Below are positions 8,190 through 34,585 of a stretch of DNA of 64,000 nucleotides, piece by piece. A program made the translations under genes and the position numbers. The notes beneath the pieces are model-generated. The model ran no database searches and was not told the DNA's origin. It saw only the letters and a list, made by a program, of their open reading frames with translations. Where the stretch lies: NCBI GenBank assembly GCA_004293645.1, contig REAB01000065.1:1-64000 (forward strand), in the 5' to 3' direction. The DNA is from Cytophagia bacterium. Lineage in GTDB: Bacteria; Bacteroidota; Bacteroidia; Cytophagales; Spirosomataceae. Positions within the stretch are counted from its first letter, which is position 1, and each line of letters begins with the position of its first letter.

Positions 8190-9470
8190 TCAATTTCTTA
8201 CCAACGACACGCCCACGGCGCAATGAAGGCATTTTTTGGGCGTACAAAACTCGTTATAGAGTTCAATAACAGCCTGCGAATCGAACGAAGTTTTGACGGT
8301 TAGCCCCAGGTTTTCCCATTTATCGGTAATGTGGTTCTGTTCGGCAGGCAAGTATTCGAGCAAACGCAGGGCTTTATCGAGAAACGCGCGGTTGTCTTTG
8401 GCCTGCGAATAAGCCACCAACAAAGGCACAACCGTGTTGATAATGATGTTTTCGACCGAACTTTTTCCCAAACCCGCTACTTTGGCTTCTGTTTTTTTAC
8501 CCAGCAAATAGTGCTGCTGCCAATAGCCCGATTGCTTTACTTGGAGCGTTTTGGCCAGTTCGTTGGCGTGTTCTACATTTATAAACAACGAAAACAGGCT
8601 GGACTGCTGCTGCACCAAAGCGGCCAATTGCGCCAACCGCACCGTCGGAAAATTGGCGGGCCGCAGCCGCAGCATTTGCCATTCGTGAGCGGGGAGTTGC
8701 TGCGCTTGGAGGCCGTATTTGGTGGCCAAAAAACTGTACTCACGGCACAATTGTTGGGTGTATTCGTCGTCAAAATCTGGGTTTTCGAGCCAGCCTGCCT
8801 GCCCCAGTAGCAAGGCTTCGGTTTGGAGTGGGCTATCGCGGTGCTTTTGTAACACTTTGAAAGGCAACCCTTTGGCCAATCGCAAAAAAGGTTCGCTGTT
8901 TATTTTAAAACCAAAATTATGAGCCAACAACTGATACGCCGTTTCTTCCCAATCGCCCTGGTTTTGTTGGTAAAGTTGCTGCACAAAAAGTGCCTTACGT
9001 TCCAAACGTTGCGTCGAAGCGCGGTCGAGCATGGTGAGTTTAGACATACTCGTTACGCTCGCAAACTGCGCCGCGCATGGTACCACGGCGGTACTTTCGA
9101 TGAGGGCGTAGTATTTTTTTAAGAACCCCGCCTGCACCCTATTTTTGAGCGTGAGCGTGGGTATCGGTGTGCCATCGGTACGCACTATGGGCGAGTCGTT
9201 TTCCCAAACTACGTGCAAAATTACGCTATCATAAGCGCGGTTGTGGGTGTGTTGGTGGCGTTGCCAGTCAGAGCTTCGGGTGTGAATTTCAACGTTGCCC
9301 GCCCATTCCAACCCGTCAATTAGCACGCGGGCATTGGTAAAATCGGGGCCAGCATCGGTGTTTTGTTGGCCTACGGCCGTTATTTGCAACGTTTCGTGTG
9401 CGTCGGTTTGCAGATTTTGCCGCTCAAAATGCTGCGTTTTCCACAAAAAACCGATTACATCTTCGTTCAT
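8190..9470 (-). CDS. DUF2851 family protein
   Basis: 426 residues. The N-terminus (EDVIGFLWKTQHFE) and the block with NTDAGPDFTNARVLIDGLEWAGNVEIH, then SDWQRHQHTHNRAYDSVILHVVWEND, match what I know as DUF2851, a Bacteroidetes-specific cytoplasmic family of about 420 residues. The paired acidic and His residues of that block look like a metal- or nucleic-acid-processing site, but no function is established. The C-terminus has CTPKKCLHCAVG with three Cys in CxxxxCxxC-like spacing. No signal peptide. Confidence 0.82.
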   Translation of the reverse strand: MNEDVIGFLWKTQHFERQNLQTDAHETLQITAVGQQNTDAGPDFTNARVLIDGLEWAGNVEIHTRSSDWQRHQHTHNRAYDSVILHVVWENDSPIVRTDGTPIPTLTLKNRVQAGFLKKYYALIESTAVVPCAAQFASVTSMSKLTMLDRASTQRLERKALFVQQLYQQNQGDWEETAYQLLAHNFGFKINSEPFLRLAKGLPFKVLQKHRDSPLQTEALLLGQAGWLENPDFDDEYTQQLCREYSFLATKYGLQAQQLPAHEWQMLRLRPANFPTVRLAQLAALVQQQSSLFSLFINVEHANELAKTLQVKQSGYWQQHYLLGKKTEAKVAGLGKSSVENIIINTVVPLLVAYSQAKDNRAFLDKALRLLEYLPAEQNHITDKWENLGLTVKTSFDSQAVIELYNEFCTPKKCLHCAVGVSLVRN

Positions 9471-9534
9471 AGAAACTTCGCTTAGGAATGGCTTTAAAAT
9501 AAGGTATCATTTTTGAACGTACTAAAAAACATGC

Positions 9535-9600
9535 TTTTGTCATGCCGAGAAACGAGGCATCTTTAACGACTTAGATACCTCGTTCCTCGGCATGACAAAA
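9535..9600. repeat. 28-bp stem palindromic element
   Basis: Arms at 9535-9562 and 9573-9600 are reverse complements except at two positions, with a 10-base loop. Both exceptions would be A-C type mismatches in a plus-strand transcript but G-U wobbles in a minus-strand transcript, so RNA read from the glycosyltransferase gene at 9689-10471 towards DUF2851 could fold fully. The arm begins TTTTGTCATGCCGAG. It could be a terminator for the GT gene or a mobile palindromic repeat. Confidence 0.8.
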
Positions 9601-9688
9601 TGTTATTTTATTTAATTCTCATCTCTTATTTAGAATGTCTAATTTACTAATAATTGCTAAATTAAATGATATTTTTGAAAAAACAATT

Positions 9689-10471
9689 TCAAGCAGCTTG
9701 TATTTGAAAAGCGTTTTCGGGGGTGGGAGTTGCAGTGTTGTGCCGAATGTAGGTTTTGAAAAAACTGCTGGCTTTCAAAAACAAAACTCCCAAAAAGCCT
9801 TCGTTGAATATTTTGGTGGACATTTTGGAAACGCCGAGCGTGCGGTCGGTAAAAATAATGGGTACTTCGGTGATTTGGTAGCCGTATTTCCAAGAGTTAA
9901 ACTTCATCTCAATCTGAAAAGCATAACCCACAAACCGAATTTGGTCTAAATTGATGCCTTCCAGCACTTCGCGCTTGTAGCACACAAAACCCGCCGTGGG
10001 GTCCATGATTTCCATGCGCGTAACAAAACGCACATAAACGCCCGCAAAATAAGACATCAAAACGCGCCCCATCGGCCAATTTACCACGTTAATACCCTTG
10101 ATATAACGCGAACCCACGGCCACATCGTAGCCGTCTTGGTCGCAGGCATTGTGTAGCCGCATGAGGTCGGTGGGGTTGTGCGAGAAGTCGGCGTCCATTT
10201 CAATTAAATAATGATACCCTTGGTGCAAAGCCCACTTAAAACCGTGGATGTAGGCGGTACCCAAACCCAGTTTTCCTTTGCGTTCCAAAATGTGCAAATG
10301 TCCCGCGTACTCGGTTTGCAATTCTTTTACTTTTTGGGCCGTGCCATCGGGCGAACCGTCGTCCACCACGAGTACGTCAAAAGGCTTGGCTAAGCCAAAA
10401 ACCGTACGGATAATGGACTCAATATTTTCAATTTCGTTGTAGGTTGGTACAATAACAATGCTCTTTTTCAT
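9689..10471 (-). CDS. Polyprenol-phosphate glycosyltransferase, GT2 (dolichol-P-mannose synthase-like)
   Basis: 260 residues. A GT-A fold family 2 enzyme: IVPTYNEIENI at the start, VVDDGSPDGTA (near 35-45) binding the nucleotide sugar, and IEMDADFSHNP (near 90-100) carrying the DxD-like metal site. Overall closest in pattern to the catalytic domain of DPM1, which moves mannose or another hexose from GDP/UDP-sugar to a polyprenyl phosphate carrier at the inner membrane. It lacks the C-terminal GtrA/membrane domain seen in some relatives. A second GT2 gene lies upstream in the same direction with a 119-base gap. Confidence 0.9.
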   Translation of the reverse strand: MKKSIVIVPTYNEIENIESIIRTVFGLAKPFDVLVVDDGSPDGTAQKVKELQTEYAGHLHILERKGKLGLGTAYIHGFKWALHQGYHYLIEMDADFSHNPTDLMRLHNACDQDGYDVAVGSRYIKGINVVNWPMGRVLMSYFAGVYVRFVTRMEIMDPTAGFVCYKREVLEGINLDQIRFVGYAFQIEMKFNSWKYGYQITEVPIIFTDRTLGVSKMSTKIFNEGFLGVLFLKASSFFKTYIRHNTATPTPENAFQIQAA

Positions 10472-10590
10472 GGCTTCGCTGGTTTTAGAATATGTGTTTT
10501 AATATCGTTTAATTAAGCTCACATTTGAAGTTCCTATCTATTGGGAGAGGAATTTGGGGTGAGGTTTTGGTAGATACAAATTCTTTTTTT

Positions 10591-11604
10591 TTAGGATGGG
10601 TACTCTACCGCCGCGCCTGTTTCGCGGTGGTTTTTGGGTTCGGTCAGTCGTTTGAAGCCTTCTTGGGCAAAACCTACGCCGTAACCAATCAACTGCACAA
10701 AAGCCGCAAAGACGCTCAGGAAACCTATTTTTACGCTTTTGGTTTGGCGGGTGGCATCGGTAAAAATAAGTAAACAAAAAAGCCCCAATAAGCCAACGGC
10801 CAAGCCCAACAACCACGGGTGAACAAAGCCTAAAAATGGAACACTGACGCAGCCTGCTGTGAATAAAAACGGAAATAAATGAACCGCTTTGAGTTCGTTT
10901 GGATAAAAACGCGCAATGTTGATACGCGCCCGACCAAAAAATTTGAGTTGTCGAAAAAAAGCCCCAAAATCAGTACGGCGTTTGTGGTAAATGAAGGCTT
11001 CGGGAATGAGTGCCGACCGAAAACCAAGTCGTAAGGCTGTGATACTGAAAATGATGTCTTCGCCCATGCGGCTAATTTGAAACCCACCCGTGCGCTCCCA
11101 AACCTGCCGCGAAAGCCCCATATTGAAACTACGCGGGTGGAAAACACCGCCCAAATTTGTTTTTTTACCCCTAATTCCCCCCGTCGTAAATACCGAAGTC
11201 ATGGAGTAACTGATGGCTTTTTGAATGGGTGTAAAACTGGGGTGGTCGGTGTCGGGGCCGCCGTACAAATCTACGTAATGGGTGCGGAGGCGGTGGGCTA
11301 CAATTTCTAAATAAGTAGGTTCGATGAGTGCGTCAGAATCAAAAATAATAAAATACTGGCCTTTGGCGTGCTTAAAACCTGCATTGCGCGCAAAACCTTG
11401 CCCCGTATTGGCCTGATAAAAATACGAAATATCTAACTGCGGCTTGAATTTTTCTACCACTTGGTCGGCTTGCACTACCGAGCCATCTTCTATAACCACT
11501 ACCTCAAAATACCGATAAGTTTGCCCCGCCAAACAAGTGAGCAGCTCGGTCAGTTCGTCGGGGCGATTGTAAACAGGAATAATAACTGAAAATTGAATGT
11601 TCAT
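10591..11604 (-). CDS. Family 2 glycosyltransferase, membrane-anchored
   Basis: 337 residues from the ATG at 11604, giving the normal MNIQFSVIIPVYNRPDEL start. Signatures are VVIEDGS (nucleotide binding), FIIFDSDALIEP (the DSD metal site, near residue 90), and GEDIIFSITALRLGF (the ED motif near the acceptor site). Two hydrophobic helices near the C-terminus (FLFTAGCVSVPFLGF and a following LGLAVGLLGLFCLLIF) anchor it in the inner membrane. It probably extends a surface glycan; the acceptor and sugar cannot be told. A run of eight T after 10580 follows the gene on the plus strand. Confidence 0.88.
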   Translation of the reverse strand: MNIQFSVIIPVYNRPDELTELLTCLAGQTYRYFEVVVIEDGSVVQADQVVEKFKPQLDISYFYQANTGQGFARNAGFKHAKGQYFIIFDSDALIEPTYLEIVAHRLRTHYVDLYGGPDTDHPSFTPIQKAISYSMTSVFTTGGIRGKKTNLGGVFHPRSFNMGLSRQVWERTGGFQISRMGEDIIFSITALRLGFRSALIPEAFIYHKRRTDFGAFFRQLKFFGRARINIARFYPNELKAVHLFPFLFTAGCVSVPFLGFVHPWLLGLAVGLLGLFCLLIFTDATRQTKSVKIGFLSVFAAFVQLIGYGVGFAQEGFKRLTEPKNHRETGAAVEYPS

Positions 11605-11639
11605 TTTTTTCGGTTTGACGCGGCAAGATACTATTTTTG

Positions 11640-11677
11640 TCAAATATCAAATAACAGATATCAAATATCACATCACC
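11640..11677. repeat. AT-rich short-period repeat (ATATCAAAT units)
   Basis: Three imperfect ATATCAAAT units occur in 38 bases between the divergent GT2 and radC genes. Similar simple-sequence blocks stand upstream of the PSP1, NifU and quinone oxidoreductase genes. No function is evident. Confidence 0.55.
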
Positions 11678-11697
11678 TCCATACCCCATAAATCCAT

Positions 11698-11715
11698 ACC
11701 GCACGGGCGGCCCCG
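11698..11715 (+). repeat. 18-base intergenic element, copy 2 of 3
   Basis: ACCGCACGGGCGGCCCCG on the plus strand, 37 bases before the radC start and pointing towards it. It differs from copy 1 (2191-2208) at two positions and copy 3 (49510-49527) at one. Confidence 0.45.
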
Positions 11716-11752
11716 ACCTTAAAACCGTACACCTTACTCCCTAAAAACTCCT

Positions 11753-12457
11753 ATGGCCGAAGTTGATTACATTGTTTCGCGCAAGATTTTGAGTTGGGCC
11801 GAAGACGACCGCCCGCGCGAAAAAATGCTGCTCAAAGGCAACGCCGCACTTTCTGATGCCGAACTGATTGCCATTTTGATTGGCTCTGGTACGGTAGATT
11901 TGTCGGCGGTAGATGTGGGCAAGCTCATTTTACAAAAAGCCAACAACAACCTCAACGAATTGGCCAAACTGTCGCTCAAAGATTTGATGAAAGTAAAGGG
12001 AATTGGCGAAGCCAAAGCCATTACCATTGCCGCTGCCCTCGAACTGGGCCGCCGCCGCAAAGATGCCGAAACCCTAAGAAGGCCAAAAATAACCTCTTCG
12101 CGCGATGCCTACGACCAAATAAAACCCTACTTGCTTGACTTGCCGCACGAAGAGTTCTGGATTTTATTGCTGAGCCGCTCCAACGAAGTGATTCGGCCCG
12201 TGCAGATTAGTCAGGGCGGGGTTTCGGGCACTATTGCCGACCCCAAATTGATTTTTAAGCACGCCATCGAACACTTGGCCAGCGCTATTATTTTGACCCA
12301 TAACCACCCCTCAGGCAACCTCACTCCCAGCCAAGCCGACAAAGACCTCACCAAACGGCTGAAAGAAGCAGGAAAATTGTTGGACACGCCCGTGCTTGAC
12401 CACTTGATTTTTACTGACTCAGCCTATTTTAGCTTTGCCGACGAAGGCTTACTTTGA
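11753..12457 (+). CDS. radC: RadC family JAB/MPN-domain protein
   Basis: 234 residues. N-terminal helix-hairpin-helix region (LSLKDLMKVKGIGEAKAI, residues ~75-92) followed by the RadC JAB1/MPN-like metalloprotease-fold domain with Glu (LPHEEFWILLL), THNHPSGNLTPSQAD (the HxH...D zinc signature) and the C-terminal LLDTPVLDHLIF. Named for an old DNA-repair allele, but its cellular role is not established. The last 34 bases overlap the convergent thioredoxin gene. Confidence 0.93.
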   Translation: MAEVDYIVSRKILSWAEDDRPREKMLLKGNAALSDAELIAILIGSGTVDLSAVDVGKLILQKANNNLNELAKLSLKDLMKVKGIGEAKAITIAAALELGRRRKDAETLRRPKITSSRDAYDQIKPYLLDLPHEEFWILLLSRSNEVIRPVQISQGGVSGTIADPKLIFKHAIEHLASAIILTHNHPSGNLTPSQADKDLTKRLKEAGKLLDTPVLDHLIFTDSAYFSFADEGLL

Positions 12458-13881
12458 GACATGGCGCGGGTACGCGCCTCATGAAAATCCAGAAAACCAT
12501 CTAACTGATCGGCGGGCATTCGCCGAGCCAAAATGGTTTTATTTTTGTCTAATACATAAATAGCGGGCGTAGTAATGACATCAAAATTGCGGCGAAAATC
12601 AATTGTAAAGCTCAAATCATAGCCGTGAATCCAATCGGCTATGCCAAATTCCCGAATGTATTTTTTCCATTGGTCGGGCGAGCGGGTTACCGATGCTGCA
12701 AAAATTTGGACGTTTCGACTGGTTTTATTTTTCTCATAAAATGCCTTCAAAACAGGGGTAGATTCGCGGCAATGCCCGCAGTCGGGGTCATAAAAAACGA
12801 CAATGGTATAGCTTGCTTTGATGTCTGCCAGCGACCGTAGCACGCCAGCGGTGTCGGTGAGTGCCAGCGCAGGCATGGTTTTGCCAGCCAGCAGCGGCTT
12901 CAACGTTGTTACTCTTTCTCGGATATTTTTGATGGTGCTCGAATCGGTAACGGGCATCACGCCCGTGAGGTAGTATTTTTCGGCCAAATGCACAAAAGTA
13001 GCTTCTATGCCCACTATTTCGGGGTTTTCGTATTTGCTGGTTAAATACCAAATGCAGTAGGCTTTCATTTCGCGGTTGTTGGCGGCCAGGGTTTTGCCAA
13101 TGGTAAAGTCGGCGGCGGCCATGAGGGAGTCAGCTACTGGGTAGGTCAAATTTTCCATGTAGCGGTCGAGTTTTCGTTGCAAAAATGGCGTGCGCACGAG
13201 TGCTTCTTCGCTAAAATCGAAATTGTCCCAAAAATGTGCCCTGTAATATCGAAACAACCAAGCTGAATCAGGGCGACCGTCGGGGCGTTTGGGGGGCGTG
13301 GGGAGTTCTATTTCATGGCTGGCTTTGAGCAATTTGGCCGTTAAAGACCCCGCATTTTCTTTTACAAAAGATTGGTAATAAGTGTTCATTTCATTACGAA
13401 TACCCCCTATTTTATTTTGCAAAATTTGTTGCCCCACGTTGTCATTACGCACTTTTGCTTGCATTTGGAGTAGTTTAATTTCGTCGGCTTGGCGTTTTAT
13501 TTGTTTTTGGTACAAGTAAAAAAGCTCATTTTCACGCGAGCCAGTTATTTTCATGTTGCCAATCAAGTCGGTGGTATCGGTTTCAAACGAAAACTGCTGG
13601 CTTTTGTCAATTACCAACTCGACCATTTTTTGTTTTTTAGGATTCAACACTAAATACAGGCCGTTGGGAAGAACATTTTTTCCTTCAAAGAGCAGCTTGC
13701 CGTCGGCGGCAGCTTGGGCAGTATCTTTGACAATAAACTGACTATGACCAAAATAATGGGCAAGAAAATAACCACCTGGTGCGGTTTTATCAATGCGGCC
13801 TTTGATGGAGTAAGTTGTATTTTGCGCTGCCGCTTGCCCCACAATAAAGAGCAGCAGCACGGCTTGTATTATTTTTCGCAT
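12424..13881 (-). CDS. Secreted TlpA-like thioredoxin with DUF4369/DUF5106-type N-terminus (paralogue B)
   Basis: 485 residues. A signal peptide (KIIQAVLLLFIVGQAAAQ) is followed by an N-terminal beta domain (YSIKGRIDKTAPGGYF, DUF4369-like), a helical middle region with a KRQADEIKLLQMQAKV coiled stretch, and a C-terminal thioredoxin fold with CGHC near residue 370 (DPDCGHCRES). It should act in the periplasm as a disulfide reductase or isomerase. It lies four bases after a paralogue of the same layout (13886-15307), so the pair is a tandem duplication and probably one operon. Its 3' end overlaps radC by 34 bases. Confidence 0.88.
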   Translation of the reverse strand: MRKIIQAVLLLFIVGQAAAQNTTYSIKGRIDKTAPGGYFLAHYFGHSQFIVKDTAQAAADGKLLFEGKNVLPNGLYLVLNPKKQKMVELVIDKSQQFSFETDTTDLIGNMKITGSRENELFYLYQKQIKRQADEIKLLQMQAKVRNDNVGQQILQNKIGGIRNEMNTYYQSFVKENAGSLTAKLLKASHEIELPTPPKRPDGRPDSAWLFRYYRAHFWDNFDFSEEALVRTPFLQRKLDRYMENLTYPVADSLMAAADFTIGKTLAANNREMKAYCIWYLTSKYENPEIVGIEATFVHLAEKYYLTGVMPVTDSSTIKNIRERVTTLKPLLAGKTMPALALTDTAGVLRSLADIKASYTIVVFYDPDCGHCRESTPVLKAFYEKNKTSRNVQIFAASVTRSPDQWKKYIREFGIADWIHGYDLSFTIDFRRNFDVITTPAIYVLDKNKTILARRMPADQLDGFLDFHEARTRAMSQSKPSSAKLK

Positions 13882-13885
13882 GGTT

Positions 13886-15307
13886 TTATTTGGTAGTTTT
13901 GGCAGCTTTGGCTTGGAAAGCGGTGCGTTGTTGATAGAGTTTCAAAAATGGTTCTAAGTCTTCGGTGCCAATGCGGCGGGCAATAATTTTCTTGTTTTTG
14001 TCCAACACATACACGGTAGGCGTTGAAAAAACGTCGTAATCTTTGTTATAATTGACTTGGCGGTTAGCCACGAGGCCGTAGCCGTTATTGAGGTTTTCCC
14101 ACTTCATTTCTTTGATAAATTTCTTCCAATCTTCTTGCGTTCCTTCCGTAGCAATGGTCATAATTTCTACGCCCTGGGCACGGTATTTGTCATAAAATGC
14201 TTTGAGTTTGGGGGCCGACTCGCGGCAGTGTCCGCAAGTGGGCGAGTAAATAAAGACCACGTTGTAGCTGCCCCTCATGCCGTGAATAAACGTCATGTTG
14301 TCTTTTTCGCCCTGCACGCCCAAATCGGGAATGGTACGCCCTACCAATAGCGGTTTGAGTATATTGACGCGGTCTTTGATTTGGCGCAGACTCGATGTGT
14401 CGCTCAAAGGCATGATGCCCGTATAATAGTATTTTTCGGCTACGTACACAAAAACGCCCTCTGTTCCCACTATTTTGGGGTTTTGGTACTCGCTAAACGG
14501 GTAATTGATGGTGTAGCCAATGAGTTCTTTTTGTTTGCCCGCTATGGCCTTGCCCACCACATAATCTACCTCTTTGTTGAGGGAGTCTTCTACTTGCACG
14601 GTCAGTTCTTTGAAGTAGCGTTCCAGTTTTTGTTGTAAAAATGGGGTGCGGAGTAGCCGCTCGTCGGCAAAGTCAAAATTGTCCCAGAAGTGCGCTTTGT
14701 AGTAATTAAACTGCCACACCGAGTCTATTTTGCCGTTGGGCAATTTGGGCGCGGGCGGCAGTTCGGGCTCAGCCGAAGTTTTGAAAAGTTTAACGGCAAA
14801 ACTGTTGGCGTTGTCTATCATAAATTGGTCATAAAATGCTTTGCGTTGGTCTTGCAAGTCTTTTATTTTTTTGTCCAAATCTTTGGGTTTTGCTGCACGA
14901 AGGGCTTGAGCTTGTTCTTCTTTGTTTTTCATGAATCGCTGAAAATCGTAGAAAAGCTCGGTGTCGCGGCCATTTTTTACTTTGATGCTGCCAATAACAT
15001 CGGCGGTGTCCACCACAAAGCTAAATTGTTGCTCATTGGCAATAACGAGCCGAACGAGGGTTTTGAGGTCGGGCAGCACCACTTCGTAAAGGCCGCCTGG
15101 CAAGGGTGTTTTACCCTCAAAAACGATATTTCCGTTGGCATCGACTTGGGCAGTATCTTTGGAATATAAGCTGGTAGATAGGTAGTTAGCCAAAATACAG
15201 TTACCACTTTTGAGTCCTTTTATTTGTCCTTCAATTCGATAAGCGGTTTGCGCGAAGCTGTTTTGGCACAGAAAAAATGCAAGCAGAAAAGCAATATTTT
15301 TAATCAT
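13886..15307 (-). CDS. Secreted TlpA-like thioredoxin with DUF4369/DUF5106-type N-terminus (paralogue A)
   Basis: 473 residues, same domain order as its neighbour: signal peptide ending NSFAQ, a YRIEGQIKGLKSGNC beta domain, a central helical region with an NYYKAHFWDNFDF block shared almost word for word with the paralogue, then thioredoxin with SPTCGHCRES and a cis-Pro loop (FSTPTVYVLDKNKKI). Probably a periplasmic thiol-disulfide oxidoreductase. Both copies keep the CGHC site, so neither looks decayed. Confidence 0.88.
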   Translation of the reverse strand: MIKNIAFLLAFFLCQNSFAQTAYRIEGQIKGLKSGNCILANYLSTSLYSKDTAQVDANGNIVFEGKTPLPGGLYEVVLPDLKTLVRLVIANEQQFSFVVDTADVIGSIKVKNGRDTELFYDFQRFMKNKEEQAQALRAAKPKDLDKKIKDLQDQRKAFYDQFMIDNANSFAVKLFKTSAEPELPPAPKLPNGKIDSVWQFNYYKAHFWDNFDFADERLLRTPFLQQKLERYFKELTVQVEDSLNKEVDYVVGKAIAGKQKELIGYTINYPFSEYQNPKIVGTEGVFVYVAEKYYYTGIMPLSDTSSLRQIKDRVNILKPLLVGRTIPDLGVQGEKDNMTFIHGMRGSYNVVFIYSPTCGHCRESAPKLKAFYDKYRAQGVEIMTIATEGTQEDWKKFIKEMKWENLNNGYGLVANRQVNYNKDYDVFSTPTVYVLDKNKKIIARRIGTEDLEPFLKLYQQRTAFQAKAAKTTK

Positions 15308-27395: not shown

Positions 27396-28103
27396 ATGGG
27401 AGGTTTAATCGTAATTGGACTGGTATTTATGGTGCTGGGTATGTTTGTACAGTGGCGCCTCAAAAGCAAATTTACCGAATATTCGCAGGTGGGTTTGAGC
27501 AATGGCATGAGCGGCCAAGAAGTAGCCGAAAGAATGTTGCGCGACAACGGCATTGGCAACGTGAGAATCACGCAAGTAGAAGGTACACTCACCGACCACT
27601 ACAACCCCGCCGACCAAACCGTCAATCTGAGTTCGGAGGTGTATTATGGCCGTAGCGTAGCAGCAGCGGCGGTAGCCGCCCACGAGTGTGGCCACGCCGT
27701 GCAGCACGCCCAAGCATACGGGCCACTCAAAATGCGCTCGGCGTTGGTGCCAGCCGTCAATATTTGCAATACCCTGCTGCAATATTTCAACATGGGAATG
27801 TTGTTTTTTGGTGGGTATATTTTTTACAATCAAGGCCTGGTTAGCACCACGCTGCTTACTATTTTGGTGGCGGCCAACGCAGGCATCACGCTTTTTGCGT
27901 TTATTACGCTGCCCGTAGAATTTGATGCCAGCCGCCGCGCTTTGGCGTGGGTAGAATCGAGGGGCATTGTGAACCGCAACGAATACGCCGATGCCAAAGA
28001 CGCGCTTTGGTGGGCAGCTACCACCTACGTCGTGTCGGCTTTGGGGGCATTGGCAAACTTGCTCTATTTTGCCAGTATGCTCTTTGGCCGTCGCAGCGAT
28101 TAA
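27396..28103 (+). CDS. YugP-like membrane zinc metallopeptidase
   Basis: 235 residues with four membrane helices. The zinc site is HECGHAVQHA (near residues 97-106), preceded by VYYGRSVAAAAVAA and followed after the next helix pair by LPVEFDASRRALAWVE, the Zn_peptidase_2 (DUF/YugP) signature. N-terminus starts with a membrane segment (LIVIGLVFMVLGMFVQW). Function in the membrane is unknown; substrates of this family have not been established to my knowledge. Confidence 0.92.
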   Translation: MGGLIVIGLVFMVLGMFVQWRLKSKFTEYSQVGLSNGMSGQEVAERMLRDNGIGNVRITQVEGTLTDHYNPADQTVNLSSEVYYGRSVAAAAVAAHECGHAVQHAQAYGPLKMRSALVPAVNICNTLLQYFNMGMLFFGGYIFYNQGLVSTTLLTILVAANAGITLFAFITLPVEFDASRRALAWVESRGIVNRNEYADAKDALWWAATTYVVSALGALANLLYFASMLFGRRSD

Positions 28104-28112
28104 TTTTTGAAA

Positions 28113-28173
28113 CTGTTTTTTCGACACAAAAGAGGCTTCCGATGGAAGCCTCTTTTGTGTCGAAAAAACAGTA
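28113..28173. terminator. 29-bp perfect stem, bidirectional terminator
   Basis: Arms 28113-28141 and 28145-28173 are exact complements with a three-base loop; each arm begins with a run of A and T (ACTGTTTTTTCGACAC...). It lies between the convergent zinc-peptidase and FKBP genes and can stop transcripts from both sides. Confidence 0.88.
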
Positions 28174-28193: not shown

Positions 28194-29039
28194 TCATTTG
28201 AGTACTTCTACTTCAAAAGCCAGCGGCGCGTAACCAGGAATATTGGCACTCGGCGAGGTACCGCCGTAGCCCAAATCAGAACTAAAAACAAGCGTGGCTT
28301 TTTCGCCGCGCCGCATTTTGGCAATGCCTTCTTCAAAACCTTTAATGGTGCGCCCTGCACCCACAGTAACGGCAAATTGTCCGCTGTCAAATACCTTGTC
28401 GTTTAGGAGTTTACCCGTGTATTTTACCTGTACTGTTTGTCCCGTTTTTACCAGCTCTTCGGTAGAAGCGGTTGTGCGAATGAAGCGCAAACCAGAGGTT
28501 GTTTTCTCGGTAAGGGTCAGTTTTTTGTCAATTATATACTCATCTACTTGCTGGGTTTCGGTGCGTACTTTCAAGATTTCCATGGTTGAGCCCAAGGCCG
28601 AATAAGCAGGCAAAATATCGGACGACTGCGACCCAAAGGCCAACGGGTGGTTCATCAAAACCTGAATTTTTTCGCCCTTTTTAGAAAGAAACAGGCCTTC
28701 TTCCATGCCAGGTAGCAAGCGTGTGCCACCGTAAGCGAAAGCGTAAGGTTTGTTTTTGAGGCGTTCGGTGCTGTCCAAAATAGCTCCTCTGAGCGTATAA
28801 AGCGTGAAATGAATGGTTAGCTCGTCGCCTACTTTAAAACCATCGCCCATTGGGTTTTCTTTTAATTTTTGGTAATAAAGCCCCGTCGCCGTTTTGGTAA
28901 TTTTCAAGTTTTGGGCTGTGATGTAATTCTGAATATCTACTTCATTTTGGTTCAAAGCCGTTTCGGCGTCGCTCTCTAATTTTTTTTGACAAGCCATTAG
29001 GCTCATTCCCAACCACACACACATCAACAATTTTTTCAT
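28194..29039 (-). CDS. FKBP-type peptidyl-prolyl isomerase, lipoprotein
   Basis: 281 residues from the ATG at 29039 (MKKLLMCVWLGMSLMAC), giving a lipobox with Cys17 and so an outer-membrane or periplasmic lipoprotein. Two FKBP domains follow: the first (GDELTIHFTLYTLRGAILDST ... EGLFLSKKGEKIQVLMNHPLAFG) is divergent; the second (GQTVQVKYTGKLLNDKVFDSG, GFEEGIAKMRRGEKATLVFSSDLGYG, PLAFEVEVLK) keeps the canonical pattern and probably carries the isomerase activity. Role: folding of exported proteins. Ends just inside the shared terminator. Confidence 0.92.
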   Translation of the reverse strand: MKKLLMCVWLGMSLMACQKKLESDAETALNQNEVDIQNYITAQNLKITKTATGLYYQKLKENPMGDGFKVGDELTIHFTLYTLRGAILDSTERLKNKPYAFAYGGTRLLPGMEEGLFLSKKGEKIQVLMNHPLAFGSQSSDILPAYSALGSTMEILKVRTETQQVDEYIIDKKLTLTEKTTSGLRFIRTTASTEELVKTGQTVQVKYTGKLLNDKVFDSGQFAVTVGAGRTIKGFEEGIAKMRRGEKATLVFSSDLGYGGTSPSANIPGYAPLAFEVEVLK

Positions 29040-29148
29040 TTGATTTTTTGACATTTTGACGTTATTGTAGAAAAATACTTACACAAATATTGCTAAATAT
29101 TTTTGACGCTAACAAGTAACAAGGCATTTTTTGACGTAAAAAAGAAGT

Positions 29149-29718: not shown

Positions 29719-30564
29719 CTAATCAAGGTTCGTTTTTACGGCCTCCCAGCCTATTATTGCCGCTTTTCGGGTACTGCCCCACATATAGTTGCCCAGTTCG
29801 CCCGAAAACGGAATGACCCGATGACATGGAATTAAAAAAGCGATGGGATTGCTTCCAATGGCCGTTCCTACTGCTCTCGAAGCCTTAGAGTTCTCAATTT
29901 TGTTGGCAATATGGCCGTAGCTGGTCAATCGTCCCGTTGGGATTTTTAGGAGCGTTTGCCAAACTTTTAACTGAAAATCAGTGCCTTTTAAGTGCAGTTT
30001 TATTTTTTGAAGATTTGTCCAGTCGTCCGCAAAAATACCGAGTGCATTTTGCTGAATTGAATCGGTTTGTTGAACGAAATGAGCATTCGGAAAATGGCTT
30101 TGCATGGTAGAGAACGCGTCGAAAACAGGGTCTATAAATGCCATGTAACAAATGCCTTTTTCGGTTGAAGCCACTATGATGTGGCCAAACGGGCTCTGGG
30201 CAAAACTATAATTGATGGCCAAGTTTTTGCCGCCATTTTTGTATTCGGCGGGAGTCATGCCTTCCATATTGACAAACAAATCGTGCAACCGACCCGTGCC
30301 CGAAAGCCCTGTTTCGTGGGCGGTTTCAAAAATAGTGGCTTGGTCTTCTTTCAAAAGTGTTTTGGCATATTCTAAACTGATGTATTGCAAAAATTTTTTG
30401 GGGCTTGTACCTGCCCATTCGCTAAAAAGTCGTTGAAAATGAAACGGACTCAAATGAACCCGCTCGGCCACTTCGTCTAAATTTGGCTGCGCTTTGAAGT
30501 TGGTTTTAATAAACGCAATCGCTTCGGCAATTCGGTTATAATTGAGGTTGTCTTGGGTGTTCAT
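29719..30564 (-). CDS. AraC-type regulator fused to O6-methylguanine-DNA methyltransferase (Ada-like)
   Basis: 281 residues. Residues 1-100 form an AraC helix-turn-helix pair (LDEVAERVHLSPFHFQRLFSEWAGTSPKKFLQYI ... GRLHDLFVNMEGMTPAEYKNGG); the rest is an alkyltransferase ending with the acceptor-Cys motif IPCHRVIPFSGELGNYMWG near residue 250. The domain order is that of Ada without its N-terminal zinc domain, so it cannot sense methyl phosphotriesters by the E. coli route. It repairs O6-alkylguanine by suicide transfer and may regulate genes. Confidence 0.93.
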   Translation of the reverse strand: MNTQDNLNYNRIAEAIAFIKTNFKAQPNLDEVAERVHLSPFHFQRLFSEWAGTSPKKFLQYISLEYAKTLLKEDQATIFETAHETGLSGTGRLHDLFVNMEGMTPAEYKNGGKNLAINYSFAQSPFGHIIVASTEKGICYMAFIDPVFDAFSTMQSHFPNAHFVQQTDSIQQNALGIFADDWTNLQKIKLHLKGTDFQLKVWQTLLKIPTGRLTSYGHIANKIENSKASRAVGTAIGSNPIAFLIPCHRVIPFSGELGNYMWGSTRKAAIIGWEAVKTNLD

Positions 30565-30642: not shown

Positions 30643-30738
30643 CTACCCAGCCCAACTTTCGCGGTCTAAGCTGCGGTACTGAATGGCCTCGGCAAGGTGT
30701 TCAATTTTGATGTTGCTGTAATGTCGAGGATTATCCAT
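30643..30738 (-). pseudogene. comM 3'-end remnant: 31-codon frame ending in the ComM tail
   Basis: The minus strand from ATG 30738 to TAG 30643 encodes MDNPRHYSN followed by IKIEHLAEAIQYRSLDRESWAG, the exact last 22 residues of the intact ComM encoded at 33044-34585. The DNA repeat itself is 30647-30713 against 33048-33114: 65 of 67 bases are identical and both differences are silent. Upstream of it the sequences are unrelated. It starts six bases after the XRE stop codon. Best read as a scar left when the cassette to its right entered the 3' end of comM, not as a functional gene. Confidence 0.8.
30647..30713. repeat. 67-bp direct repeat, left copy (comM 3' end)
   Basis: Left boundary of a 2401-bp unit; the partner is 33048-33114. 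Mismatches are G at 30670 against A at 33071 and A at 30694 against G at 33095. It looks like an attachment-site duplication, although no integrase is present. Confidence 0.9.
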
Positions 30739-30744
30739 TTTTGC

Positions 30745-31113
30745 TTAGTCAGTAAATTTATTTCTGGATTCTATTTTTTCTAATAAATCTATCAATCTCT
30801 GTCTTTCTTGGCGCATATGAGTCATTTCAGAAATAAGCAAATTCAAAATTTCTTTTGGACATTCATATTGTATGAAACCCCCTTTGATAGATTTGTTATT
30901 ATTGAAGTATAGAATTGGTTGATCGTTTGACAACAGTTCTTGAATGGATACCTCCAGTATGTTGGCTATGTCTTGAAAACGATCAATTGTTATTTTGATT
31001 TGGCCATTTTCCATTCGAGAATATGTGTTCTGAGAAACTCCAAGTTGTTCAGCCATATAGTCTTGTGTGTAATTTTTCAATTCTCGAATAATCTTTATTT
31101 TCTGTGTTATCAT
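30745..31113 (-). CDS. XRE-family HTH transcriptional regulator
   Basis: 122 residues. The helix-turn-helix (YTQDYMAEQLGVSQNTYSRME, residues ~15-36, with the following KITIDRFQDIANILEVSIQELL) is canonical. A C-terminal ~55-residue extension ends in a charged coiled coil (SEMTHMRQERQRLIDLLEKIE), probably for dimerisation. It is transcribed divergently from the lipoprotein gene, 99 bases away, and an inverted repeat in that gap is a candidate operator. AT-rich like the rest of the cassette. Confidence 0.9.
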   Translation of the reverse strand: MITQKIKIIRELKNYTQDYMAEQLGVSQNTYSRMENGQIKITIDRFQDIANILEVSIQELLSNDQPILYFNNNKSIKGGFIQYECPKEILNLLISEMTHMRQERQRLIDLLEKIESRNKFTD

Positions 31114-31150
31114 AATGTTATCGTTTTTAAGAAATTAGATTTAAGAATAA

Positions 31151-31173
31151 ACTATCCCTTTTTTGGGAATAGT
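31151..31173. promoter_or_regulatory. Candidate operator between xre and the lipoprotein gene
   Basis: ACTATCCC at 31151-31158 and GGGAATAGT at 31165-31173 form an imperfect inverted repeat. It lies just before a TATCTTTC -7-like box (31178-31185) serving the lipoprotein gene, so a bound XRE dimer would block that promoter. Assignment is by position and symmetry only. Confidence 0.4.
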
Positions 31174-31212
31174 CGGTTATCTTTCGTTAAAATAACTAAA
31201 CATTTTACACAA

Positions 31213-32595
31213 ATGAAAACACTATTCGTAAAATTAGCTTCGTTGTTTCTTATTATCGTTCTCTCATTGAGTTGCGAGAACAAAGAATCGCTTGAAACAC
31301 TTCAAGAAACCCCCGTGTCTTTGGTTCAAAATACAGGGCAAATGGACGTATCAAAAGCCAAAGTATGGTTTGAGAAAAATGTACAACTTTCTAAAAAATC
31401 AGCAAGATTGGGGGCTGAGTCAATTAAGAAAGCCAATTGGGAGACCGCATTGCAAATGTTTTCTACCAAGAGGGGATGGTATTTGCAAATACCCATATCC
31501 CGCGATAATGTGAGCCTTACCTATTCTGACAGAGCAAACGGCAAAAATGAAAAAATAGACCCGTTACCTCTTCCGACAGAAATGCTGTATATCTTTGATG
31601 ATAATGGAAGGTACAATCATTATGTAGTAGAACTACTGCCAGATGCCGACTACCTCAAAAAGCTGAAAGACAGAAAAGAAAAAGTGCAAATTTTTGACAA
31701 GAAAAAGTATTCAGGTTACTTCTTCACCAAGGAATGGGATGATACCCCAAAAGAAGGATGGTACATGAAAAATGGTAAAGTGTTAAAAACTTTGTCCCCC
31801 CAGAATTTAAAAAAAAACGGTAGAACAACTGGTTGTGATTGGTTTACACGTTACCATTTTAGTATTGTTTGTATGACAGGTGGTGAAATAACTATAATAG
31901 GTCATCAAGAATCTTTACCTGGTGATAATCCAAACGCAGGATATTCATTAGCATCGACTATACCACAGCCAACGGGTCACAATTGTAGGCATAGTTCATG
32001 GCAGTTTACCGAGGCAGATCTGTATATGGTTTGCCATTTTGATGATAATGGAGTACCAGAACCAATAGAATATTTCCCATTTATACCTACTGAGCCATTG
32101 GGTCCAGGGATATGGACACCATTAACCATGATAAATTACTTTAATTTAAGCTCTCAACTTAATAGTGCAGAAATCAATTTTTATAGTGGTAATACATGGA
32201 TGATTCCGATGTCAATGGTAAATAGAGCCTCTGCAAATAATAAAATTGAAGAGTACTATTGTAATAATGCTGACGATTTTAACGGTAATGCCTTTAAACA
32301 TGCCTACTGGTCGGCACTCAATACGTGGACTTTTGGGGCTGGATATGCCCAAACGATGGGGCAATTACACGAGGGAGGAAGCAATAGTGCGTTGAAAAGC
32401 GAAATGGATTTGCATAATAACCAATTGGGAATTACAATTGCATTAGGAATTCCGAGTTCTGCTGGAGAAGATGTTTTAATACAAAGTATTTTAAATGCCA
32501 TCAGCAGTGGACAAGGAAAACGATTAGCCCTTATACCAGGGGATAATTCATTCACTTTTACTGTTTCAACCGATGGCACGAACCGTTGTAATTAG
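31213..32595 (+). CDS. Cassette lipoprotein with C-terminal His/Trp-rich domain (DUF6973-like), function unknown
   Basis: 460 residues from the ATG at 31213; the frame is open further up but that part is antisense to the XRE gene. A signal peptide with lipobox LSLSC (Cys21) predicts a membrane lipoprotein facing outward. After about 300 residues with no recognised domain (a CDWFTRYHFSIVCMTGG segment in the middle, with several Cys), the C-terminus reads AFKHAYWSALNTWTFGAG, GQLHEGG and SEMDLHNNQLGI. This His-Trp, HE and DLHNN set resembles the DUF6973 domain found at the ends of diverse Bacteroidetes surface proteins and toxin-like proteins. Its 3' end overlaps the next gene by 23 bases. Confidence 0.8.
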   Translation: MKTLFVKLASLFLIIVLSLSCENKESLETLQETPVSLVQNTGQMDVSKAKVWFEKNVQLSKKSARLGAESIKKANWETALQMFSTKRGWYLQIPISRDNVSLTYSDRANGKNEKIDPLPLPTEMLYIFDDNGRYNHYVVELLPDADYLKKLKDRKEKVQIFDKKKYSGYFFTKEWDDTPKEGWYMKNGKVLKTLSPQNLKKNGRTTGCDWFTRYHFSIVCMTGGEITIIGHQESLPGDNPNAGYSLASTIPQPTGHNCRHSSWQFTEADLYMVCHFDDNGVPEPIEYFPFIPTEPLGPGIWTPLTMINYFNLSSQLNSAEINFYSGNTWMIPMSMVNRASANNKIEEYYCNNADDFNGNAFKHAYWSALNTWTFGAGYAQTMGQLHEGGSNSALKSEMDLHNNQLGITIALGIPSSAGEDVLIQSILNAISSGQGKRLALIPGDNSFTFTVSTDGTNRCN

Positions 32596-32995
32596 ATGCT
32601 TAATCATTGTGGTAATTGTGGGGGCATTGATACTACTGGGTAATCGAAATATCTACACTTATGATGTTCAAGATGTGGGTATTCGGAATAATTTTAAACC
32701 CCAAGTGAGTAACCCATTTGGTACAGAACACTACTCAATGCACGTTCAAGGAGAATTGGACGGGACGGCTGAATTGCATCTACTCGGGCCTAAATTTGAC
32801 CTCAATAAAGAGATTGATTGCACAAGATATTTATGCAGCAAATTAGACTCGGGCAAAATAGATAAATACTTTTATGACGATTATTATGGTGAATTTGAAA
32901 CTCCTAATCTTTGCTACGTGCCCTGCACGGCAAAGAAAGGACATCTAACCATTACAATTTCTTTTGGTCGAGACCTTCGAAAGTCTTGGTGGTAA
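32573..32995 (+). CDS. Small membrane-anchored protein of unknown function
   Basis: 140 residues. An N-terminal membrane helix (CLIIVVIVGALILLG) is followed by a ~110-residue extracytoplasmic domain with a paired-Cys pattern (CTRYLC, and NLCYVPC), suggesting two disulfides. No family recognised. The start overlaps the lipoprotein gene by 23 bases in another frame, so the two are probably made together. It ends 48 bases before comM's stop. It could be a partner or immunity-like protein for the lipoprotein, but that is speculation. Confidence 0.75.
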   Translation: MARTVVIRCLIIVVIVGALILLGNRNIYTYDVQDVGIRNNFKPQVSNPFGTEHYSMHVQGELDGTAELHLLGPKFDLNKEIDCTRYLCSKLDSGKIDKYFYDDYYGEFETPNLCYVPCTAKKGHLTITISFGRDLRKSWW

Positions 32996-33043
32996 AATAA
33001 TAAATCGGTGGTGCGACTTCAAGTTGTGCCACCGCTTTATTGT

Positions 33044-34585
33044 TTATCCAGCCCAACTTTCGCGGTCTAAACTGCGGTACTGAATGGCCTCGGCGAGGTG
33101 TTCAATTTTGATGTCGGGGCTGGCCGATAGGTCGGCAATGGTGCGCGATACTTTTAAGATGCGGTCGTAGGCCCGGGCTGAGAGGCCGAGGCGTTCCATG
33201 GCAGTTTTGAGCAAGGCTTTGCCTGCATCGCTAATCTGACAAATTTCTTTTACCATCTGTGAGGGCATCATGGCGTTGCAATACACCCCCGCTTGGCCTT
33301 TGAAGCGTTCGGTTTGAATCTCGCGGGCTTTGATGACGCGCTCCCTGATTTGCCCGCTGGCCTCGGTGCGGCGCGTGGAGGCAATCTGGTCAAAACTGAC
33401 AGGCGTAACTTCTACGTGCAGGTCAATGCGGTCGAGGAGCGGGCCACTTATTTTGTTCAAATACCGCTGCACGGCCCCTGGCGGACACACACATTCTTTG
33501 TCGGGGTGGTTGTAATAGCCGCAGGGGCAGGGGTTCATGCTGGCAATGAGCATAAAATTGGCAGGAAACTCTACCGCCCATTTGGTGCGCGAGATGGTTA
33601 CTTTGCGTTCTTCGAGGGGTTGCCGCATTACTTCGAGGGCGCTGCGTTTGTATTCGGGGAGCTCGTCCAAAAACAGCACGCCGTTGTGGGCCAACGATAT
33701 TTCGCCAGGTTGCGGAAAACTCCCGCCCCCCACCAGCGCGGCATCGCTCACGGTGTGGTGCGGCGACCGAAAAGGCCGCCGCGATACCAACGACGACTGC
33801 TTTCCGAGCTTACCCGCCACCGAGTGAATTTTGGTGGTTTCGAGGGCTTCTACGAGCGTAAGCGGCGGCAAAATAGACGGCAACCGCTTGGCCAACATGG
33901 TTTTGCCCGCGCCAGGCGGGCCAATCATAATGACATTGTGGCCACCCGCCGCCGCAATTTCGAGGGCGCGTTTGATATTTTCTTGGCCTTGCACGTGCTC
34001 AAAGTCGGCCTCGTAGTCGTTTACGGTATTAAAAAACAAATCGCGGGTGTCTATTTGGAGTGGTTCAATGTGTTTTTTACCTTCCAAATATTCAACGGCA
34101 TCTTGCAGCGTTTCTACGCCAATTACGTCCAACTGATTGACAATGGCGGCCTCGTGGGCATTTTCGGCGGGCAAAATAAACCCCTTAAAACCCTGCTTGC
34201 GGGCTTCGACGGCAATGGGAAGCACGCCTTTAATGGGCCGCAGCTTGCCATCGAGCGAAAGTTCTCCCATGATAACGTACTGCTCCAAGTTGCGTTCGGG
34301 TTGCATTTGCTCCGACGACTGCAACACGCACAGCGCAATGGGCAGGTCGTAGGCCGAGCCTTCCTTGCGGATGTCGGCGGGGGCTAAATTGACCACCACT
34401 TTTTGACGGGGCATTCGGTAATTAAAAAACTTCAAAGACGCTTCTACCCGCTGTTCGCTTTCTTTGACGGCACTGTCGGCCAAGCCTACCATAAAAAAAC
34501 GCATACCCTGCCCCACCGTTACTTCGATGGTAATCATGGTGGCACTCACGCCATAAACTGCACTGCCAAAGGTTTTTGCGAGCAT
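33044..34585 (-). CDS. comM: ComM/YifB Mg-chelatase-like AAA+ ATPase
   Basis: 513 residues, full length, with the typical MLAKTFGSAVYGV start. Walker A GPPGAGKTMLAKRLP (near residue 220), Walker B LFLDELPEYKRSALEVMRQPLEERKV, a sensor-type HMASMNPCPCGYYNHP analogue (LIASMNPCPCGYYN) with the four-Cys zinc element, and the C-terminal AEAIQYRSLDRESWAG helix. ComM is a hexameric helicase that promotes branch migration and natural transformation in the bacteria where it was studied. Its last 67 bases are duplicated at 30647, so its 3' end is an insertion point. Confidence 0.95.
   Translation of the reverse strand: MLAKTFGSAVYGVSATMITIEVTVGQGMRFFMVGLADSAVKESEQRVEASLKFFNYRMPRQKVVVNLAPADIRKEGSAYDLPIALCVLQSSEQMQPERNLEQYVIMGELSLDGKLRPIKGVLPIAVEARKQGFKGFILPAENAHEAAIVNQLDVIGVETLQDAVEYLEGKKHIEPLQIDTRDLFFNTVNDYEADFEHVQGQENIKRALEIAAAGGHNVIMIGPPGAGKTMLAKRLPSILPPLTLVEALETTKIHSVAGKLGKQSSLVSRRPFRSPHHTVSDAALVGGGSFPQPGEISLAHNGVLFLDELPEYKRSALEVMRQPLEERKVTISRTKWAVEFPANFMLIASMNPCPCGYYNHPDKECVCPPGAVQRYLNKISGPLLDRIDLHVEVTPVSFDQIASTRRTEASGQIRERVIKAREIQTERFKGQAGVYCNAMMPSQMVKEICQISDAGKALLKTAMERLGLSARAYDRILKVSRTIADLSASPDIKIEHLAEAIQYRSLDRESWAG
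33048..33114. repeat. 67-bp direct repeat, right copy (inside comM)
   Basis: Last coding bases of the intact comM. Paired with 30647-30713 at an offset of exactly 2401 bases; right boundary of the cassette. Confidence 0.9.

What the first reader, a model, noticed from the sequence alone, without database searches (positions are those of the whole stretch)
30643..33114. 2.4-kb cargo cassette framed by 67-bp direct repeats made of the comM 3' end
Seen: 30647-30713 and 33048-33114 are 65/67 identical at an offset of 2401 bases; both mismatches are silent and both copies keep the last 22 ComM residues. Between them is an AT-rich block (one 60-base line counts 32% GC, against 53% in comM) with an XRE regulator and, divergently, a lipoprotein gene overlapping a small membrane-anchored gene. 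The left copy is followed by unrelated sequence, so one is a scar. Inferred: the block entered by recombination at the 3' end of a conserved gene and brought, or copied, a fresh 3' end, as attachment sites do. No integrase is in the cassette, so it may move by an outside recombinase or homologous exchange. The cargo is not a system I know.
Basis: partly seen in the sequence, partly recalled or inferred. Interest (0 to 1): 0.78.

Follow-up and report, generated by a model that had tools for sequence, protein, structure and literature searches.

The report
Conflict-gene cassette inserted after comM
A three-gene cassette that looks like a bacterial toxin, its antidote and a regulator seems to have been inserted just behind the DNA-uptake gene comM, bringing a spare copy of that gene's end, and the same spot holds different cassettes, several of them defence or toxin genes, in about a dozen related bacteria.

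Summary
Confirmed: the last ~68 nt of comM recur 2401 bp away around a three-gene block. It is not a one-off. Of 222 genomes of the family, 179 match a comM 3'-end pattern; 12 of these carry an extra comM end downstream on the same contig, around unrelated inserts of 0.5-56 kb (BREX, Ssp/Pbe and PD-Lambda-2-like genes, an IS, others). For 7 of the 12, not the window, a relative has the empty site and matches the DNA beyond the distal copy, so there that copy is native and displaced. Stops differ between copies in 8 of 12; in all 5 informative cases the distal stop equals the relative's, so the comM-attached end came with the insert. No tyrosine or large serine recombinase was found in the inserts. 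Repeats start 42-131 nt before the stop (483 and 654 in two genomes). Elsewhere the layout is rare: 2 of 348 control genes (one a paralogue pair) and none of about 897. The lipoprotein's DUF6973 domain is related to a solved Bacteroides T6SS effector; the small protein is its likely immunity partner. Most likely a crossover inside comM's coding end, probably homologous; a recombinase in trans is the main rival. New variant of a known kind.

The parts
33044..34585 (-). comM (YifB-type Mg-chelatase-like AAA ATPase), 513 codons, intact
   Evidence: Mg_chelatase E 4e-97; 87% identical protein in Runella
33045..33114 (-). proximal copy: the functional comM 3' end, inferred to have come with the insert
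   Evidence: by analogy with carriers whose distal copy is native
33006..33034 (.). imperfect inverted repeat between the convergent ends of the small gene and comM, possible two-way terminator
   Evidence: read by eye; not scored by a tool
32573..32995 (+). 140-aa protein, N-terminal hydrophobic helix then beta strands; likely immunity protein; related proteins share a C-terminal A-K-K-G-like motif
31213..32595 (+). 460-aa predicted lipoprotein (LSLSC lipobox, by reading) with C-terminal DUF6973 (residues 338-433); likely toxin
   Evidence: (PF22322, E 1.9e-18)
30745..31113 (-). 122-aa XRE/Cro-C1 regulator, divergent from the lipoprotein
   Evidence: HTH_3, E 1.1e-16; no family over its cut-off among those shown
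30644..30713 (-). distal copy: last 22 codons of comM with its own TAG stop, inferred displaced native end (scar)
   Evidence: analogy
29719..30564 (-). ada-like gene (AraC domain plus methylguanine methyltransferase): first gene beyond the distal copy
   Evidence: no other copy in the comM loci compared

Best explanation
The 2.4-kb block is a mobile cassette of conflict genes (regulator, DUF6973 lipoprotein toxin, membrane-anchored immunity protein). Incoming DNA that carried a comM 3' end followed by the cargo crossed over with the resident comM within its last ~70 nt. The resident gene received the incoming 3' end and stop codon and stayed intact; the native end was pushed to the far side as a scar. 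Shown for the window: the block, the coding-end repeat with two different stops, no recombinase. Shown for relatives: recurrence at this gene with different cargo, empty sites, native distal ends. Inferred: that the window's own block has the same history; that the crossover is homologous recombination of a circle or transforming molecule needing about 45 nt of homology; and that crossover between the two repeats could release the cassette as a circle with one comM end.
For: 12 of 179 pattern-matched genomes (222 searched) have the extra end downstream on the same contig and strand; empty sites for 7 of 12; stops differ in 8 of 12 carriers, and in the 5 of 7 empty-site cases where the two copies differ, the distal stop equals the relative's each time; codon differences wholly silent in 6 of 12 carriers: 41/41 (G214), 9/9 (G236), 4/4 (G216), 3/3 (window), 1/1 (G188, G017); in the six carriers compared plus the window the two copies are closer to each other than to any of the other loci held; 5' limits scattered, 3' limit at the stop codon in most; no tyrosine or large serine recombinase in inserts; comM ends in series in G178; a clpB example.
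Against: A purely homologous process should hit many genes, yet the controls gave one non-paralogous case in 348 genes and none in about 897. Four 5' limits lie between -42 and -50. No circle or excision product was seen. Inside the repeats, relatives match now one copy, now the other, so the crossover is not located; the two relatives compared with G188 share the stop of its comM-attached copy, not the distal one. No empty site is known for the window, G168, G178, G188 and G236.
Confidence: 0.48

Rival explanations
1. Site-specific recombination in trans: the last ~48 bp of comM are an attachment site, and a recombinase encoded elsewhere (another element, a phage or the host) moves recombinase-less cassettes in and out, as Xer does for dif modules.
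For: Strong preference for comM over about 1245 control genes; in the order, outside the family, only G345 of about 311 genomes had two matches, on separate contigs (this search missed the carrier G207); no further, shorter repeats in 51 and 80 comM loci at the thresholds used; cargo differs between carriers; recombinases can use this gene, as viral contigs with a PF00239 recombinase beside a truncated comM show. The window's genome has six PF00589 genes elsewhere, untested.
Against: 5' limits are spread, not fixed; by eye no shared sequence at the cargo ends; no recombinase identified; no dif-like half-site in the repeat (a crude test).
Confidence: 0.3
2. Remnant of an integrative element: a phage or island with its own integrase entered comM and supplied a new 3' end; deletion inside removed integrase and backbone, leaving cargo between attL and attR (CIME-like).
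For: Viral contigs L162, L163, L164 and genome G151 carry a 534-618-aa PF00239 recombinase next to a comM copy truncated at about codons 278, 344, 216 and 226; viral contig L167 ends in a comM fragment from about codon 468 but holds no PF00239 or PF00589 match.
Against: Each of the 12 carriers would have had to lose the integrase; in the short inserts (0.5-2.4 kb) I read no phage genes; repeat copies are closer to each other than to other species (94% against at most 85% for G214), unlike a fixed phage-borne end.
Confidence: 0.14
3. Target duplication or tandem duplication in the resident genome (insertion with long target duplication in the literal sense): the repeat was copied from the resident gene.
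For: Layout and variable length match that description; G168 repeats the comM end, 59 nt beyond it and a paralogue-like downstream gene; in G021 (second copy on another contig) the copies are identical over 72 nt and 8 nt from the stop on; stops are equal in 4 of 12 carriers.
Against: Stops differ in 8 of 12 carriers, the window included, and codon differences are wholly silent in 6 of 12, so two functional genes are the likely sources.
Confidence: 0.08

Closest known systems
Insertion with long target duplication (restriction-modification genes, Helicobacter pylori; Nobusato et al. 2000, Furuta et al. 2010)
   Same: Insert of selfish or defence genes flanked by long, variable direct repeats of the target (passages read in PMC1643837 and PMC3031569; of the two original papers one was not held, and the other was not opened).
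   Different: Here one gene's 3' end is hit repeatedly across genera, the gene is preserved, and the second copy looks imported rather than copied from the resident gene.
dif modules of Acinetobacter plasmids
   Same: Cargo modules between short recombination sites, moved by a recombinase encoded elsewhere (abstract of PMC6449649; listing).
   Different: Sites there are Xer/dif; the comM repeat shows no dif half-site and is protein-coding.
AbaR islands and defence-carrying elements in comM of Acinetobacter baumannii
   Same: comM as a target of elements that often carry defence systems (passages of PMC11472951).
   Different: Those interrupt and inactivate comM; here comM stays open.
CIMEs and 3'-end attachment of prophages (for example e14 at icd)
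   Same: A gene's 3' end is replaced by an element-borne copy and the native end displaced (recalled, no call).
   Different: Those have, or derive from, an element with a recombinase; none is seen here.
T6SS effector-immunity pairs of Bacteroidales
   Same: DUF6973 region aligns with a solved B. fragilis T6SS effector (PDB 9uu0, E 3.4e-9); adjacent, often tandem, small partner genes.
   Different: Here the domain sits on a predicted lipoprotein; delivery route and toxicity unknown.

Membership tests
Insertion with long target duplication | insert flanked by a long direct repeat of target DNA and absent in a relative | tested here: inconclusive
   repeat met; empty site found for 7 of the 12 carriers, the window not among them
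Insertion with long target duplication | both repeat copies derive from the resident target | tested here: not met
   different stops and three silent codon differences in the window; stops differ in 8 of 12 carriers and the distal stop equals the relative's in 5 of 5 informative cases
Integrase-bearing integrative element | tyrosine or large serine recombinase in the element | tested here: not met
   window ORFs and Pfam; PF00589 and PF00239 in 10 of 12 carriers (in one search a few weak rows of G017 and G209 were not listed); own HMM on the inserts held, G162, G207, G017 and G209 included. One small resolvase lies in the 56-kb G214 insert
dif/Xer module | XerC/XerD binding site in the repeat | tested here: not met
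   no TTATGTTAA-like site (up to 1 mismatch) in either repeat; the half-site is recalled from E. coli and the variant of this phylum was not modelled
Gene 3'-end attachment site | fixed crossover point shared by independent insertions | tested here: inconclusive
   5' limits from -42 to -131 and two longer; four lie between -42 and -50
Toxin-immunity pair (DUF6973 lipoprotein and small protein) | conserved adjacency, and homology of the toxin domain to a known effector | tested here: met
   small partner genes at 11 of 11 homologous loci listed, of 19 fetched
Toxin-immunity pair (DUF6973 lipoprotein and small protein) | toxicity and neutralisation | not testable with these tools
   needs expression tests

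The most novel reading that the evidence does not exclude
The 3' end of comM is the common docking site of an integron-like cassette system in this family (Spirosomataceae by the record titles and recall): recombinase-less cassettes of defence, toxin-antitoxin and toxin-immunity genes, each tagged with one comM end, are exchanged and can be stacked (G178) by one recombinase acting in trans, while comM itself is kept working.
Probability: 0.2. Interest if true: 0.85.

Novelty: new variant of a known kind. Interest (0 to 1): 0.62.

Why it matters
Defence and toxin cassettes spread quickly, but how those without a recombinase move is poorly understood. This locus gives a dozen natural examples at one gene, with empty sites for seven, ends defined nearly to the base, and stop codons and silent differences that reveal which end was imported. 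It also contrasts with Acinetobacter, where elements destroy comM: here they settle behind it and leave it intact.

Tried and rejected
Chance repeat: rejected (and controls). Assembly artefact: the window's genome is in 241 contigs, but the same layout occurs on contigs of 4 to 8.9 Mb (G178, G168, G194, G214, G207, G216), so the layout is real; the window's own join was not checked with reads. Transposon with short target duplication: the repeat is coding and the stops differ. tRNA or RNA target: none. Xer/dif site: no half-site. Locating the crossover from relatives: too noisy. Tyrosine integrase near comM: none in the loci held with a home-made HMM whose leave-one-out check found 20 of 20; the 80 loci were not scanned with it. 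Phage and plasmid collections: comM hits in 17 and 49 records, 52-78% identical in the rows shown, not followed. Viral contigs with the lipoprotein: none; plasmids: 7 records with partial matches. Structure of the lipoprotein: pLDDT 53.8, Foldseek found nothing at E 0.001. Small protein: pLDDT 83.9; 21 Foldseek matches at E 0.001 or better, to assorted beta-sandwich proteins at TM about 0.35-0.5, not used. Literature: no description of a comM 3'-end cassette site in the results; the word DUF6973 in no held paper; some searches were seen as listings only.

Rows dropped or set apart: 43 of 222 genomes had no match and are outside the 179; of the 15 genomes with two or more matches, G163 (second match in another 527-codon frame), G013 and G021 (second copy on another contig) are outside the 12. 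G151 has a second, 70% copy on another contig and was not seen twice by the pattern. G013's second copy is a diverged one from codon 339, which the ungapped rule cuts at -36; it is left out of the list of limits, G021 (-72) is in it. G168 reaches codon 465 but -126 by the rule. The decayed G207 copy escapes the thresholds, so negatives there are not absolute.

Full report
Observation. The repeat is real: 30644-30713 and 33045-33114, 67/70 identical, 2401 bp apart. Over the 64-kb window the only other direct repeats of 36 nt or more are two pairs at 74-75%. It is the coding end of comM. The comM-attached copy ends in TAA, the distal copy in TAG, and the three codon differences are silent. The block holds three genes, an XRE regulator and, divergently, a lipoprotein gene overlapping a small gene, with 31 nt between the regulator and the distal copy and 48 nt between the small gene and comM. 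Its G+C (30-41%) is low against comM (50-60%) but less so against ada (41-45%).

Recurrence. A search of 222 genomes of the same family with the last 56 residues of ComM, 14 of them again in detail, and a 33-base degenerate pattern with up to 2 mismatches (179 of 222 genomes match, reversed-pattern control zero in each row) gave 15 genomes with two or more pattern matches. In 12 the extra end lies downstream of comM on the same contig and strand: the window's genome (2.4 kb), G017 (20.0 kb), G162 (0.5), G168 (1.27), G178 (1.5 and 28.6 kb, comM ends in series), G188 (0.8), G194 (1.44), G207 (0.49), G209 (10.5), G214 (55.6), G216 (6.9) and G236 (1.8). The named relatives are mainly Runella, Spirosoma, Fibrella, Larkinella, Dyadobacter and other genera of the order. 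In the wider order (390 genomes, about 311 outside the family) only G345 outside the family had two matches, on separate contigs; that search found five of the six known cases it covered (window, G017, G021, G162, G194) and missed G207.

Rare at other genes. Among 348 open frames of 150 or more codons in twenty-five 20-kb stretches of carrier genomes, two had a second copy of their last 45 nt (38 or more matches): one pair of tandem paralogues and one clpB gene whose end is repeated 798 bp downstream around a decayed VapC-like toxin-antitoxin cassette (gene labels by reading). In 80 named comM loci plus the window, 978 such frames gave three hits, each of them comM (3 of 81), so none of about 897 others. 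Fisher tests: 12/179 against 2/348, p 8e-5; within 11 kb, 10/179 against 2/348, p 6e-4; the two searches do not cover equal lengths of DNA, and the control stretches come from carriers.

Empty sites. For the 12 carriers I compared up to 2 kb beyond each end with 3 kb behind comM in 37 non-carrier loci. DNA beyond the distal copy matches DNA behind a single comM in a relative for 7 carriers: G017 with G164 (87.6% over 1751 nt), G162 with G007 (79%), G194 with G190 (91.5% over 2001 nt), G207 with G227 (91%), G209 and G214 with G228 (82%), G216 with G213 (78%). On the comM side, three carriers (G162, G194, G207) have matches; these lie beyond the insert except two short ones in G194 (21 nt right after the stop, where its repeat runs on, and a 31-nt repeat). 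So in these seven the distal copy is native and displaced. For the window, G168, G178, G188 and G236 no such relative was found; G236 had only 250 nt to compare. For the window this step is by analogy.

Source of the new end. Stops differ between the copies in 8 of 12 carriers. Among the seven with an empty-site relative they differ in five (G162, G194, G207, G214, G216), and in all five the distal stop equals that of the relative; in G017 and G209 the copies share a stop that the relative lacks. In G188, without an empty-site relative, the two relatives compared share the stop of the attached copy. Codon differences are wholly silent in six carriers: 41 of 41 (G214), 9 of 9 (G236), 4 of 4 (G216), 3 of 3 (window), 1 of 1 (G188, G017); the others include amino-acid changes or stops: G162 1 of 4, G168 2 of 3, G178 3 of 9 in each copy, G194 1 of 3, G207 5 of 7, G209 2 of 6. 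One search assumed 27% silent for random change. The reading: the attached end came with the insert from a functional comM of a close relative, and the displaced end decays. In G214 the copies are 94% identical while the other loci held reach 85% at most; the same ranking holds for G178, G236, G216, G209, G017 and the window.

Limits of the repeat. By an ungapped rule the 3' limit lies within 4 nt of the first stop base except in G021 (+8), G194 (+25) and G168 (+59). The 5' limits are -42, -48, -48, -50, -68 (window), -72 (G021, other contig), -90, -102, -108, -126, -131, and -483 (both copies in G178) and -654 (G214). No further repeats, down to 30 nt in 51 loci and 21 nt in 80 loci, were found at the thresholds used; the decayed G207 copy escapes those.

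Cargo. PADLOC profiles identify BrxB, BrxC, PglZ, BrxL and AbiEii in the G017 insert, PD-Lambda-2 A and the first third of PD-Lambda-2 B in G188, a weak candidate match (PDC-M03A, E 1.5e-4) for the HipA-like gene of G236, and SspA, PbeA and SspD in G216. By reading only: G194 a transposase, G168 a paralogue-like copy of the gene downstream, G209 metabolic genes, G178 and G214 mixed genes with transposases, G162 two short frames, G207 no clear gene. So at least four or five of twelve inserts are defence or toxin-antitoxin genes; the others are not. PF00589 and PF00239 searches of ten carriers showed no match inside an insert except a small resolvase in G214's (one search left a few weak rows unlisted for G017 and G209); a home-made integrase HMM found none in the loci held, which include the inserts of G017, G209, G162 and G207.

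The window's cargo. The lipoprotein carries DUF6973 (PF22322, E 1.9e-18). A profile of 11 homologues matches a solved Bacteroides fragilis T6SS effector, PDB 9uu0, E 3.4e-9, over the NAFKHAxW...HE...DLxNNxLG region. At 11 of 11 homologous loci listed (of 19 fetched) a small gene of one diverse family, often two or three in tandem, accompanies it; 18 such proteins, the window's included, were aligned (identities to the window's 18-42%). One of those loci also has a divergent XRE-like gene (L087, by reading). This is the usual layout of toxin and immunity genes; toxicity is untested. PADLOC and NCBIfam gave no family for the lipoprotein. Forty-six of 222 family genomes, own included, match the lipoprotein at E 0.001, mostly in part, and in the loci compared only the window's copy lies beside comM.

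Mechanism. The facts call for incoming DNA with a comM end followed by cargo, and a crossover inside the coding end. Homologous recombination of a circle or transforming strand explains the missing recombinase, the scattered 5' limits, a minimum near 45 nt, the import from close relatives and the clpB case. Its weak point is the strong preference for comM, which a recombinase acting in trans on the last ~48 bp would explain better. Recombinases do use this gene: three viral contigs and one genome carry a PF00239 recombinase of 534-618 aa beside a comM copy truncated near codon 216, 226, 278 or 344, so the inserts with long repeats (G178, G214) could be relics of such elements. I put 0.48 on the homologous model and 0.3 on a recombinase in trans.

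Comparison. Insertion with long target duplication, described for restriction-modification genes of Helicobacter pylori, is the nearest known pattern (passages), but there the repeat is understood as a target duplication. comM is a known target of defence-bearing elements in Acinetobacter baumannii, where it is inactivated (passages). I found no description of the comM 3' end as a cassette site in the searches.

Noticed in passing
L162, L163, L164 (viral contigs) and L080 (G151): A PF00239 recombinase gene of 534-618 aa sits directly beside a comM copy truncated near codon 278, 344, 216 or 226, which suggests that several phages or islands integrate into conserved internal motifs of comM and supply a replacement 3' part.
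   Followed up: partly
L154 (G216, 20-kb control stretch), about 8820-12306, minus strand: The end of clpB is repeated 798 bp downstream around a decayed antitoxin and PIN-type toxin gene: the same layout at another conserved gene.
   Followed up: partly
window 28112-28172: Perfect 29-bp inverted repeat with a 3-nt loop between the convergent ends of two genes (27396-28103 + and 28194-29054 -), probably a two-way terminator.
   Followed up: no
window 12944-15161: Two direct repeats at 74-75% identity, about 1.4 kb apart, possibly tandem paralogous genes.
   Followed up: no
L083 (G191) and L093 (G196): Short or broken DUF6973 fragments next to one or two small immunity-like genes, beside a proA-like gene (by reading), as seen in polymorphic toxin loci.
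   Followed up: no
L074 (G209) and L073 (G214), first ~33 nt after the comM stop: Two inserts with different cargo share about the first 33 nt behind comM, and the DNA beyond both matches the same relative, which suggests cargo turnover at one ancestral insertion.
   Followed up: partly
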